Source: Prototheca cutis
Lineage: Eukaryota; Chlorophyta; Trebouxiophyceae; Chlorellales; Chlorellaceae
Reading direction: 5' to 3'
Length of the DNA: 64,000 nt
NCBI GenBank assembly: GCA_002897115.2
Contig: BCIH01000002.1
Location: 1,449,234 to 1,513,233, forward strand
The position numbers and the translations under genes are program-made. Of the stretch, positions 2,955 through 32,525 are shown piece by piece (the first letter of the stretch is position 1; every line of letters starts with the position of its first letter). The notes under the pieces are model-generated. The model was not told where the DNA came from. It did not search any database and saw nothing but the letters and a program-made list of their open reading frames with translations.

Positions 2955-3317
2955 CCATGCAGGGCAAAAATAATGCAACCAGCTCAGCCAGCAACAGCGC
3001 CACATCACCCCGGGGGTTGCTGGGCATCACTGATGGCCGAAAATTTTCACACTCTGCAGGGCAATAGGAAGGTGGACCACCTCAATGATGGACCACCGAG
3101 TTGCAACAAGTGTCGTGCCAGGCTCAATTCCCAGGACCTTCTAAAACCTCTTTGCACGACCTGCGCCTTGGTGCCAAGAAGGAACCCAACCCATCCTCTG
3201 AGCGACGCGGCCAGGGAATGCGGTCCAACAGGCATTTTGTTTGGAACCCATGCCCTTGCTGTGCAGGTGGGGAGTGGACGAATCTCGAGAAGGTTTCATC
3301 ATTTTTGCCCTGCACGG
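2955..3317. mobile_element. Non-autonomous TIR element, copy 1 (363 bp, TA-flanked)
   Basis: The element is bounded by 21-bp terminal inverted repeats at 2955-2975 and 3297-3317. The shared core is TGCAGGGCAAAAATRATG, read inward from both ends. TA dinucleotides flank it at 2953-2954 and 3318-3319, as expected for Tc1/mariner-type insertion. A second copy lies at 15765-16358: both arms align almost base for base (the 2958-3096 arm with 15768-15903, and the 3177-3300 arm with 16213-16341). Copy 1 has no intact ORF, and the centre is much shorter than in copy 2, so it is an internally deleted, MITE-like derivative. Confidence 0.85.
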
Positions 3318-3493
3318 TACAGGTCAAGTGGGAGGGGAAGCAAGCAAGGCTAATACAGATGAATGAGCACGAGCAGGCAGCCAAGCAGGGTGGCCTGATA
3401 GGCCGGAGTCGCACGGCCGCAGTGCGATAAACACTGCTCACACAGCAGCAGTCTCAGGCACGGCGTGGCATTCATTCATTCCACTGCAGTGTT

Positions 3494-14472: not shown

Positions 14473-15390
14473 ATGAATGCGGAAGGGGATGCAGTGGCCC
14501 CAAGAGTGAACCCCAAGGAGGCAGAAGCCGTCGCCACAGATCCCAAGCCTGAGAAGGTTACGGAGCGGACCCCGAGGGAGGAGACTGGGGGCGAGGACAA
14601 TGACTTCTTCAGCTGCAACATCTGTTATGAGGTGGGTTTATGGATAGAAAAGGGACACATGCATGGGCCTTCGGGCCGGCCGTGCCCGTGTCAGGGTTGA
14701 TGCGCCGGAACGCCATTGAGCCTGTTCCCTCCAGGGGGGTTGCGACGGCGGACTAGTCCACTGGCATGAACGGCGGCCCTGGCATACCCGACACACCCAA
14801 CTGCTCTCTGAGGAATTCATGTGGCATGCTTGGCCGTTGCAGCATCAGCCCCATTGCCCGGCCCACGGCCTGCGAGGTCTCCAACCCATTCCCCCGTTGT
14901 TGCGCCCCTCCCAAACAAACCGCAGACTGCCATCGACCCCGTGGTGTCGCTGTGCGGCCACATGTATTGCTGGCCCTGCCTGTACCGCTGGATCCAGGTG
15001 TCGAGCCATTCGGGGACGTGCCCCGTGTGCAAGGCAGGCGTTGACGCATCGACAGTGATCCCTATTTTCGGCCGCGGCGGCGACGGGGTCGACCCCCGCA
15101 CCGAGAGCCGGGCCGTCGATGGCGGCGAGCGCATTCCCGACAGGCCTCCGCCCCGGCGGCCCCCCGTGCGCCCTGGGCCAGTGTCGGTCTCCCCGCTGGG
15201 CGCCGCCGGCGTGGGTGGGCCCGGCCTGGACGCGCAGGGGCCTGGGCTCGTGCCTGTGCTCTTGGGTATGCGGGCCGGGGGCATCGGTCTACAGGAGCAG
15301 CTCACACAGGAGCAGCAGCACCAGGCCTTTCTTTCCCGCCTGCTCCTCATGCTCGGCTCCTTTGTCATCCTGTGCCTCCTCCTGTTCTAG
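14473..15390 (+). CDS. RMA/RNF5-like membrane-anchored RING E3 ubiquitin ligase
   Basis: The exons are 14473-14631 and 14926-15390 (GT-AG, phase 0), giving 207 residues. The RING finger is split by the intron: DNDFFSCNICYE at the end of exon 1, then TAIDPVVSLCGHMYCWPCLY and HSGTCPVCKAGV. This is the C3HC4 pattern with the DPVV.LCGH.YCWPCLY signature of RNF5/RNF185 and plant RMA proteins. A Pro/Arg- and Gly-rich middle is followed by a C-terminal hydrophobic anchor (LLLMLGSFVILCLLLF) that reaches the stop codon, so the ligase should be tail-anchored with the RING facing the cytosol, most likely in the ER membrane and ER-associated degradation. The N-terminal 45 residues are acidic and disordered. 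The start ATG 14473 is the first in a suitable context. Confidence 0.92.
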
Positions 15391-15764
15391 AGAACGCACG
15401 CGCCCTTGCACGAGCGCTCAAACAGCATACGTGCACGAATTTTGGCGGGGGGTCAGTGGACCGCCGCCACACATTGCTGTCTTGCTTCACAGACCCCCGG
15501 AAAGACTGACATAAGAATGTGTACTATGCCCTCGCGCGCTTTGATCAGAAGATACTTGGAATAAATGCGCGCTCCGTGCACCTGGTCCAGCAGCCACCCG
15601 TCCCTCTGTAGCGCTGGCCTGCTCTGATAAAAGCCGTTGGCGTGCTGCGGGCGGCTTCAGGCCCCACTGTGCTGCGCACGCCCACCCACCACCGCCATGA
15701 TGATCGCTGCGGTATTGCCCTTGTCGGTTTAAAAAAGGTGAGAACAGAACAAGATGCAATACTA
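15391..15764. other. 3' flank of the RMA gene up to the TIR element
   Basis: 374 bases that should hold the 3' UTR. I see no gene and no clear element boundary before the TA at 15763-15764. Confidence 0.4.
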
Positions 15765-15904
15765 CCGTGCAGGGCAAAAATAATGCAACCAGCTCAGCCA
15801 GCAACACCGTCACATCACCCTGGGCGTTACTGGGCATCACTGATGACTGTGAATTGTCACCCCCCACAGGGCAATAGGAAGGTGGACCACCTCAATGATG
15901 GACC

Positions 15905-15934
15905 ACCTCCTTTCCCTTCCCGGGGAAGGGAAGG
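15905..15934. repeat. Strong GC-rich inverted repeat just downstream of the Fanzor-type stop
   Basis: Near-perfect palindrome of about 30 bases (a CTCCTTTCCCTTCCC arm facing GGGGAAGGGAAGGAG). On the minus strand it lies about 65 bases beyond the Fanzor-type stop codon, towards the left TIR. A second hairpin, GGTGGACCACC, adjoins it at 15890-15903 and is conserved in copy 1. In Fanzor and TnpB elements the guide RNA comes from this side of the gene, so folding here is worth noting. Confidence 0.5.
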
Positions 15935-15999
15935 AGCCCCGGGGTTCCCACCCCAGTTGGCAAGGCTATAACCCCCCAGGATGGATGGATGGATGTTCA

Positions 16000-16209
16000 T
16001 CAGCACCGCGGCGCTGGGCGCTGGAAGTGCTCCAGCCGCTTGCCGGTCTTCTGCAGGTGCTGCACAATGTGCCTCATGTTCGGACACGCCATCAAGTCTC
16101 TGTTCCAGAGACGATGCTCGCTGTTTGGGGGGCGGCACTCCTTGTTGGTGCAGCGCAGCAGCCCGTGGCACACCACCGTGGGCGTCTGCTCCCTGCCCGA
16201 CCTGCCCTG
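16000..16209 (-). pseudogene. Fanzor-type nuclease C-terminus inside the TIR element
   Basis: The frame runs from an in-frame TAG near the right arm to the TGA at 16000-16002, about 69 residues. It reads TPTVVCHGLLRCTNKECR, then SEHRLWNRDLMACPNMRHIV, and ends with QKTGKRLEHFQR. The order (a Cys pair of the zinc ribbon, R-L-W-N-R-D-x-x-A-x-x-N-M-R-H-I, then TGKRxExFxR) matches the conserved end of Fanzor proteins, the eukaryotic TnpB-like RNA-guided nucleases; the Asp of NRD is the third RuvC catalytic residue. The first Cys pair and everything upstream are missing, apparently deleted together with the rest of the gene at the junction with the right arm. It is not functional alone. Confidence 0.75.
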
Positions 16210-16400
16210 CTATCAGAAGGAACCCAACCCATCCTCTTAGCGATGCGCCCAGGGAATGCGGTCCAACAGGCATTTTGTTTGGGAGGCATGCCCCTGCTGT
16301 GCAGGTGGGAGTCTTCTGACGAATCCCGAGAAGGTTTCATCATTTTCTGCCGTTACTGTAGACACACTTCTATCAGAATGTAGCGACAGACGCTGCGTGT

Positions 16401-31982: not shown

Positions 31983-32171
31983 ATACCTTTCTCGGCCTTT
32001 TGGCTAAGATCAAGTGTAGTATCTGTTCTTACTAGTCTAACAGCTAGTATCTCGTCCATCGGACGAGACTTTGTTAGATATATTTTTCGTGGCGTGACGC
32101 CATCAGCCTAGTTTACTAGGCCGGTGTCACACGCATCGCCTCGGCCTTTCACTCCCGCCCTGGTGGTGCAG
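31983..32171 (+). ncRNA. U2: U2 spliceosomal snRNA
   Basis: The 5' portion CTCGGCCTTTTGGCTAAGAT is the universally conserved U2 stem I region, followed by CAAGTGTAGTATCTGTTCTT, which contains the branch-point recognition sequence GTAGTA. Stem IIa (CTAGT...ACTAG type) and stem IIb (CTCGTCC ATC GGACGAG) follow, then the Sm site ATATTTTTCG at about 32080-32090. A 3' stem IV can be drawn as GCATCGCC (32133-32140) with GGTGGTGC (32162-32169). The ends are inferred: an ATACC start, and 189 nt in all, close to the usual 187-191 nt. U2 pairs with the intron branch point in the major spliceosome. Confidence 0.95.
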
Positions 32172-32525
32172 CCTTACCCCCCCTCCTCCACCACCACATC
32201 CAAACCCACAAACCATCAACCAACCACACCAAGATCCACAACCCCAAACTCCCCCAGCGATCACCACCTCCTACTCTGCATGCATTGATGGCCCTTCTGG
32301 GCCTGCTTGCGCACTGGGTGAAAGGGATATTGTCGCATGCCAAAGAAAAAATTCTGAAGAAAGACTGCATGCACAAGGACTAGGGATACATGTATGGGCG
32401 CACTGTGAGAAAGCAATCGCGGCGGCGGCAGATGTTGGCCAGTCGGCACTCAGTGATAGTTATGCATGCAACCGCGTCGTACAACAAGCAAAATTCTGGA
32501 GCAGACAGACTCCCCCGCTGCCTGT
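32172..32525. other. Region between U2 and the glutaredoxin gene
   Basis: 354 bases with a CCACCACA-rich stretch just after U2 and nothing else recognisable; the glutaredoxin 3' UTR should be here. Confidence 0.4.

What the first reader, a model, noticed from the sequence alone, without database searches (positions are those of the whole stretch)
15765..16358. A TA-targeting TIR element that carries the end of a Fanzor-type RNA-guided nuclease
Seen: 594 bp bounded by inverted repeats, TA on both sides, with a minus-strand frame ending RLWNRDLMACPNMRHIV and TGKRLEHFQR after a zinc-ribbon Cys pair. Known: that string order is the conserved C-terminus of Fanzor proteins, eukaryotic homologues of TnpB that cut DNA under guide-RNA direction and travel on diverse transposons. 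Inference: this family of elements once had a full Fanzor gene between these same arms, and this genome or its relatives should still hold intact copies. A green-algal TIR family paired with a Fanzor gene would be a good source of a new RNA-guided nuclease.
Basis: partly seen in the sequence, partly recalled or inferred. Interest (0 to 1): 0.88.

Follow-up and report, generated by a model that had tools for sequence, protein, structure and literature searches.

The report
Deletion relic of an algal Fanzor transposon
This 594-base stretch is a shrunken, non-coding copy of a mobile element whose full-length relatives in the same genome carry a gene for Fanzor, an RNA-guided DNA-cutting enzyme; such "ghost" copies are already known in a fungus, but hundreds of them here show the element's ends and a likely recognition motif of the enzyme.

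Summary
15765-16358 is a 594-bp element with imperfect terminal inverted repeats and TA on both sides. Its minus-strand remnant matches the C-terminus of solved Fanzor1 proteins. The family is large: 339 left-end matches, 0 in the control. 44 paired ends fall into ~360-bp, ~600-bp and 2-4-kb classes, with three deletion-junction types. The Fanzor remnant is decaying: its frame is shifted in 10 of 16 fetched mid-size copies. Insertion sites are asymmetric. The side upstream of the Fanzor gene carries T[GC]TA in 66 of 100 listed sites, the other side in 36 of 100, as a Fanzor recognition motif (TAM) would. A guide-RNA role for the conserved left arm is plausible but unproven. No transposase was found. 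"Ghost" Fanzor elements are published for Spizellomyces, and a Fanzor-encoding repeat is the commonest in Auxenochlorella: a new member of a known kind.

The parts
15765..16358 (.). 594-bp non-autonomous element (mid-size deletion derivative of a Fanzor1 TIR element)
15763..15764 (.). TA target-site duplication, left side
16359..16360 (.). TA target-site duplication, right side
15765..15790 (+). left terminal inverted repeat (26 bp, imperfect)
16333..16358 (-). right terminal inverted repeat (26 bp, imperfect)
15765..15907 (-). left arm, 3' of the Fanzor remnant; better conserved of the two arms; candidate guide-RNA (omega-RNA) scaffold lies in its last ~75-100 nt, read on the minus strand (inferred)
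   Evidence: folding inconclusive
15907..16196 (-). stretch homologous to the 3' end of the Fanzor gene and its downstream region in long copies
16000..16209 (-). open frame holding the Fanzor1 C-terminal remnant (69 aa; first Met is that of NRDLM; keeps only the third catalytic Asp)
16189..16196 (.). internal-deletion junction (left and right homologies overlap by 8 bp)
16189..16358 (.). right arm (5' end of the parent element, upstream of the Fanzor gene)
16359..16362 (-). TCTA, TAM-like motif at the junction upstream of the Fanzor-gene 5' end (includes the TA)
15748..15762 (-). flank just beyond the left end; would be the guide if an omega-RNA is made as in SpuFz1 (inference only)
   Evidence: position; analogy with PMC10432273
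2955..3317 (.). second copy in this window, small class (363 bp, arms only, no Fanzor sequence), TA at 2953-2954 and 3318-3319

Best explanation
A non-autonomous, internally deleted copy (a MITE or 'ghost') of a 3.4-kb TA-inserting TIR element that carries a Fanzor1 gene. SHOWN: shared arms with Fanzor-encoding copies, TA target sites, size classes, three deletion-junction types, frameshift decay of the Fanzor remnant in the short copies, and an asymmetric T[GC]TA flank on the side upstream of the Fanzor gene. INFERRED: a transposase acting in trans on the two ends moved it. The left arm (downstream of the Fanzor stop) encodes or once encoded the scaffold of a Fanzor guide RNA whose guide would come from the flanking DNA. 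Intact Fanzor made by long copies cuts emptied sites next to T[GC]TA, so that the element is copied back there. That would explain why retained copies, even those without a Fanzor gene, sit beside that motif mainly on one side. Identity of the element: about 0.95. The Fanzor-guided retention step: about 0.4.
For: Remnant matches solved Fanzor1. Long copies with the same arms encode Fanzor1, E 1.4e-56 for L040. L040 and L038 both hold IDPGR, IDEFRTSKRCPAC, CTNEKC and WNRD, which align with Fanzor1 (mapped by hand to SpuFz1 D383, E541 and D606 of PMC10432273). 339 left-end and 109 right-end matches genome-wide, 0 in the reversed controls. Size classes: 10, 24 and 10 of 44 paired ends. Three junction types. 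Frame shifted in 10 of 16 mid-size copies, while 11 of 12 long copies keep one frame over the same stretch. Codon-position differences are 164:57:197 in 10 long copies against 102:81:96 in 6 in-frame mid copies. Flank asymmetry: T at -4 in 82 of 100 sites upstream of the Fanzor 5' end and in 45 of 100 on the other side, Fisher p 8e-8; 25% at TA sites in the window. In 29 paired elements 23 against 12, discordant 14:3, p 0.013, same direction in all three size classes. The left arm is better conserved than the right in 12 long copies, 0.927 against 0.832.
Against: No RNA evidence: single folds are no more stable than shuffles (z -0.70, -0.56, 1.08, -1.18) and covariation is almost nil (1 of 23 pairs). 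No transposase found. The other side of the insertion sites also exceeds background (T[GC]TA 36 of 100 against 16.5% of TA sites), so part of the preference is two-sided and transposase-like; unequal ends could make it asymmetric. The two most complete long copies, L040 and L038, lack the TA at their left end (ATG and CTG). No empty site was seen for the 33 joined flank pairs tested against the sequence in hand. Constraint on the long Fanzor frames is modest: dN/dS 0.51 between L040 and L038, 0.67-0.69 to L050. Only 8 of 150 matched stretches hold a stop codon, so decay is mainly by frameshift and many remnants are still open.
Confidence: 0.8

Rival explanations
1. A passive MITE: all movement and all flank preference come from an unidentified transposase, and Fanzor has no part in keeping or copying the short elements.
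For: TA target sites and TIRs suffice for trans-mobilisation; asymmetric ends could orient insertion at TGTA-like sites; a weaker T and G preference also exists on the other side (T 45 of 100, G 51 of 100); no sign of a folded or covarying RNA.
Against: A transposase preference around a central TA should be nearly the same on both sides; T at -4 is 82 against 45 of 100. The conserved dinucleotide upstream of the 5' end has a close parallel in Spu-1 elements (CA, TAM CATA; PMC10432273).
Confidence: 0.4
2. The 69-residue frame is a domesticated small zinc-ribbon peptide gene kept by selection.
For: It is open in the window copy; 150 scored places in the genome match it and 142 of those stretches hold no stop (long copies included).
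Against: Frame shifted in 10 of 16 fetched mid copies; second codon positions are not spared in in-frame mid copies (102:81:96) but are in long copies (164:57:197); first Met lies after the remaining Cys pair and the first Cys pair is missing.
Confidence: 0.02
3. Chance: a Fanzor pseudogene fragment that happens to lie between two weak inverted repeats.
For: The inverted repeats are imperfect and the repeat finder does not list them.
Against: Many copies with the same ends, different flanks and TA on both sides; pattern controls 0 against 339 and 109.
Confidence: 0.005

Closest known systems
Spu-1 Fanzor1 elements and their 'ghost' derivatives, Spizellomyces punctatus (Saito et al. 2023, PMC10432273; section 7 read; passages)
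   Same: Fanzor1 gene between inverted repeats; many short copies (134 ghosts against 42 full or partial Fz loci there) that keep both ends and lack the gene; a conserved dinucleotide just upstream of the 5' repeat; the end downstream of the gene is shared by Fz and ghost loci.
   Different: Here the motif is T[GC] before TA, not CA; the ~600-bp class still holds the last ~60 codons of Fanzor; a third, ~360-bp class exists; the host is a green-algal-like genome; an omega-RNA was shown there and is only inferred here.
Fanzor-encoding most abundant repeat of Auxenochlorella UTEX 250-A (Plant Cell 2025, PMC12636532; passages and section 6 read)
   Same: Abundant Fanzor-encoding repeat in a compact trebouxiophyte genome; possibly the same family (not tested).
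   Different: The passages seen call it 'an uncharacterized element' (its supplementary notes were not seen); ends, target site, size classes and flank motif are described here for the window's genome.
Fanzor1-only TA-TSD elements such as PUl-4 of Pythium (Bao and Jurka 2013, PMC3627910; passages read)
   Same: TIRs, TA target site, Fanzor1 as the only gene.
   Different: PUl-4 has TIRs identical to confirmed Mariner elements; no transposase or matching mariner was found here.
Parasitella parasitica Fanzor1 (PDB 9cf0)
   Same: Closest solved protein by sequence; catalytic residues and zinc ribbon align.
   Different: Distant homologue, matched in three separate stretches; TAM reported for PpFz1 is ATN (passage), not T[GC]TA.

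Membership tests
Fanzor1 nuclease (the long parent copies) | RuvC D-E-D triad with DPG-type first motif, then C4 zinc ribbon and RD (motif of Bao and Jurka; D/E/D numbering of Saito et al.) | tested here: met
   L040 frame aligned with 9cf0 (E 1.4e-56) and 8gkh (E 1.3e-29); IDPGR, IDEFRTSKRCPAC, CTNEKC and WNRD in L040 and L038; residue mapping by hand. Pfam Cas12f1-like_TNB only below its cut-off (16.5 and 21.5 bits against 26.3)
Fanzor1 nuclease (the window's own fragment) | complete RuvC triad and C4 zinc ribbon | tested here: not met
   69 residues keep only the second Cys pair and the last Asp
Fanzor1 nuclease | guide RNA transcribed from the element end and RNA-guided cleavage | not testable with these tools
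   left arm conserved but folding and covariation inconclusive; no RNA data
Ghost Fanzor elements (Spu-1 type) | short copies sharing both ends with Fanzor-encoding copies but lacking the Fanzor gene | tested here: met
Ghost Fanzor elements (Spu-1 type) | conserved dinucleotide upstream of the 5' inverted repeat, in Fz and ghost loci alike | tested here: met
   T[GC]TA in 66 of 100 listed sites; in 6 of 9 long, 8 of 12 mid, 7 of 8 small copies
MITE | short, TIR, constant-length TSD, high copy, no coding capacity, derived from a longer element | tested here: met
Tc1/mariner | TA target-site duplication | tested here: met
   29 of 33 elements with TA within 3 bp of both ends
Tc1/mariner | mariner-type transposase in the element or a TIR-matched partner | tested here: inconclusive
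   DDE_3 0 matches with a control that rang; DDE_1 and Transposase_1 0 matches but no control rang; four frames of 374-595 codons overlapping the Fanzor frame in L040 and L038 have no Pfam match above cut-off. Not filed as mariner

The most novel reading that the evidence does not exclude
The short copies are a genome-wide array of hundreds of guide-RNA loci: each would give a Fanzor guide RNA made of the conserved left arm plus ~15 nt of its own flanking DNA, used in trans by Fanzor from about two dozen longer copies, so that one nuclease guards hundreds of elements against loss. The mainly one-sided T[GC]TA motif would be the footprint of that guarding and predicts the TAM.
Probability: 0.25. 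Interest if true: 0.75.

Novelty: new member of a known kind. Interest (0 to 1): 0.5.

Why it matters
It gives a kind of element, called uncharacterized in the passages seen of a relative's paper, defined ends, a TA target site, three deletion classes and a concrete TAM prediction (T[GC]TA). What Fanzor does for its transposon in eukaryotes is open. One-sided flank selection in gene-less copies is a sequence footprint of trans-acting, guide-directed retention that can be tested in other Fanzor families, and it is a cheap way to predict TAMs from genomes.

Tried and rejected
Giant open frames (up to 4597 codons) reported beside some Fanzor matches are N runs, not proteins.

Idea that mid and small classes share one right breakpoint: rejected. 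The small class has a longer right arm and two mid types differ by ~17-19 bp (by eye). One mid type may descend from the other, so three junction types need not be three independent events.

Guide-RNA structure: folding and covariation gave no support either way; Rfam gave only a chance-level match (20.4 bits, gathering score 160).

Transposase hunt: DDE_3 and DDE_Tnp_4, 0 matches with controls that rang; DDE_1, Transposase_1 and Plavaka, 0 matches but no control rang, so those three allow no conclusion. The search is six-frame and intron-blind.

Empty-site search: flanks of 33 elements were joined in a script and compared with the window and the loci then held; no hit spanned a junction. The window's small copy was joined 2 bp off, and some other ends may be 1-3 bp off. 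The whole genome was not searched for empty sites.

Protein relatives: the whole-length search scored 8000 candidates, none significant; residues 390-680 found 5 proteins, best 64% identical.

Ascertainment: copies were chosen by arm similarity (best 40 each). Arm conservation was therefore judged on the 12 long copies, 11 found through the protein and one (L053) through paired ends. One search lists 100 of 109 right ends and one search lists 100 of 339 left ends, best first; flank counts rest on those. One search had 134 right and 117 left ends from capped lists, so 90 right ends stayed unpaired. One search used 33 elements; L015, L053, both L055 copies and loci with one readable end were left out. 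Two of its 29 (L026, L046) have the TA 2-3 bp off. In one search the frameshifted L010 inflated the mid-copy dN; one search drops it. L046 and L053 were not among the 10 long copies.

Literature: statements on what is in print rest on searches (open-access PMC papers). The passage of PMC11423790 lists the TAMs of GtFz1 and SpuFz1 in the reverse order to PMC10432273; I used CATA for SpuFz1 from the latter.

Full report
WHAT IS THERE. The window lies in a 19.9-Mb genome of 23 contigs and holds a U2 spliceosomal RNA gene, so a eukaryote. The element runs from 15765 to 16358, with TA on each side. Its termini, CCGTGCAGGGCAAAAATAATGCAACC on the left and CAGTAACGGCAGAAAATGATGAAACC as the reverse complement of the right, are imperfect inverted repeats (21 of 28 positions with the TA, by eye). 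The repeat finder does not list them. They are nevertheless the true ends: in most other copies fetched the similarity stops at the same bases or within a few, next to different sequence, and 29 of 33 copies checked have a TA within 3 bp of both ends.

THE PEPTIDE. The minus-strand frame 16000-16209 matches Parasitella parasitica Fanzor1 (E 8.1e-9) and Spizellomyces punctatus Fanzor1 (E 1.7e-4) among solved structures; Pfam finds nothing above a cut-off. It keeps the second zinc-ribbon Cys pair and the last catalytic Asp (RLWNRD) and lacks the rest; its first Met follows that Asp. It cannot be a nuclease.

THE PARENTS. In the same genome, 150 scored places (of 296 candidates) match the peptide. 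Of 133 places matched by a 299-residue Fanzor query of a sister subfamily, 25 reach back into its first 101 residues; the other 108 start at residue 144 or later (places, not genes). Loci L040 (3573-6998) and L038 (2063-5490) are 3426- and 3428-bp elements with the same two arms, 92% identical. L040 has a 748-codon open frame that matches Parasitella Fanzor1 at E 1.4e-56 and Spizellomyces Fanzor1 at E 1.3e-29. The three RuvC acids align there (mapped by hand to SpuFz1 D383, E541 and D606 as given in PMC10432273), and both L040 and L038 hold IDPGR, IDEFRTSKRCPAC, CTNEKC and WNRD. The two frames hold 16 and 30 ambiguous bases, and most other long copies have N gaps. Two gap-free Fanzor frames were seen, L050 5069-7108 (680 codons) and L051 3852-6161 (770 codons); both belong to more distant subfamilies whose ends were not determined. 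Four other frames of 374-595 codons overlap the Fanzor frame in L040 and L038; none has a Pfam match above cut-off, so no second gene was recognised; shorter frames were not searched.

THE FAMILY. End patterns match 339 times (left) and 109 times (right) with up to 2 mismatches, against 0 in the reversed controls. Pairing 134 right with 117 left ends from the capped lists gave 44 pairs: 10 of 355-376 bp, 24 of 556-712 bp and 10 of 2.0-4.3 kb. One of the last ten, 2807 bp, is two elements with other DNA between them (L055), and some long lengths include N gaps. Three junction types are seen (by eye): the window type, joined within a CTCCYTGC match; a second mid type 17-19 bp longer (L018, L027, L051); and the small type, which joins position ~143 of the left arm to a longer right arm. 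The window holds one further copy, 2955-3317, of the small type.

DECAY OF THE REMNANT. Of 16 fetched mid copies, 6 keep the Fanzor frame and 10 have frameshifts (in L024 two that compensate); 11 of 12 long copies, 1.6-4.8 kb, keep one frame over the same stretch. Differences by codon position are 164:57:197 among 10 long copies and 102:81:96 among 6 in-frame mid copies (pairwise sums, not independent). Against this, only 8 of the 150 matched stretches hold a stop, and dN/dS between the frames of L040 and L038 is a modest 0.51 (0.67 and 0.69 to L050). The gene looks constrained in long copies; the remnant much less so.

INSERTION SITES. In 100 listed sites per side, the side upstream of the Fanzor 5' end has T at -4 in 82 and G or C at -3 in 90; the other side has 45 and 75; the exact tetramer T[GC]TA is seen 66 against 36 times. 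In the window's own TA sites T is at that position in 25%, and T[GC]TA makes up 16.5%. Fisher's test for T gives p 8e-8, for the tetramer 4e-5. Within 29 elements with a TA at both ends, T is found 23 against 12 times; discordant pairs 14:3, p 0.013; the difference goes the same way in long, mid and small copies. The other side, too, exceeds background, so some of the preference is two-sided. In Spu-1 elements a conserved CA precedes the 5' repeat in Fz and ghost loci and the TAM is CATA. By analogy T[GC]TA is predicted as the TAM here. A transposase with unequal ends is the main rival. L040 and L038 themselves have ATG and CTG, not TA, at the left end.

THE LEFT ARM. In 12 long copies (11 found through their protein, one through paired ends) the left arm is more alike than the right (mean pairwise identity 0.927 against 0.832; mid copies 0.886 against 0.854; small 0.935 against 0.847). 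In Fanzor1 the guide RNA comes from the end downstream of the gene and runs about 15 nt into the flank. The position fits. But single folds are not more stable than shuffles, only 1 of 23 consensus pairs shows a double change, and Rfam has no relevant match. The guide RNA is therefore an inference from position and conservation.

TRANSPOSASE. Pfam DDE_3 and DDE_Tnp_4 give no match where controls rang; DDE_1, Transposase_1 and Plavaka give none but no control rang. The superfamily stays open. TA alone does not make it a mariner.

WHAT IS KNOWN. Saito et al. 2023 (section 7 read) describe ghost Spu-1 elements: 134 loci with the repeats but no Fz gene, beside 42 with full or partial genes. Bao and Jurka 2013 (passages) describe Fanzor1-only elements with TA target sites and list one Fanzor family in Chlorella vulgaris NJ-7. 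[quoted passage not shown] The size and composition here (19.9 Mb, window about 61% GC) fit that species, but no tool named the genome, so this is a guess.

VERDICT. The thing is a new, well-populated member of a known kind. The new point of interest is the mainly one-sided T[GC]TA footprint shared by gene-bearing and gene-less copies.

Noticed in passing
window 2955-3317: A second, 363-bp copy of the family (small class) flanked by TA; its right flank reads CCTGTA, fitting the T[GC]TA motif.
   Followed up: yes
L050 (G000:C4:1441500-1451400), about 1.4-3.2 kb, 4.6-7.1 kb and 8.9-9.9 kb: Three copies of a second Fanzor1 subfamily (HGLLRCANCK type, about 63-65% identical to the first) within 8.5 kb, two direct and one inverted; the middle one has a gap-free 680-codon frame. 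Ends not determined.
   Followed up: partly
L007 3153-3156; L054 about 2202-2229: In L007 two copies sit head to head, right end to right end, sharing one TA: insertion next to another copy's right end, which itself supplies a TGTA. L054 shows the same arrangement, but its junction holds ambiguous bases.
   Followed up: no
window 31983-32176: U2 spliceosomal RNA gene, full length, 153.9 bits.
   Followed up: no
window 14812-15390 (+): RING-finger frame ending in a hydrophobic C-terminal tail, just upstream of the element (Pfam zf-RING_2 5e-7); it looks like a membrane-anchored RMA/RNF5-type ubiquitin ligase (this reading is by eye and recalled).
   Followed up: partly
window about 15866-15878 (element position ~102-114): An internal near-repeat of the terminal motif lies ~100 bp inside the left end (ACAGGGCAATAGG here, TGCAGGGCAATAGG in some copies), a possible second transposase-binding site.
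   Followed up: no
L035-L049: Most of these long loci have N runs (up to several kb) inside the Fanzor genes, as collapsed near-identical repeats would give; gap lengths may be estimates.
   Followed up: partly
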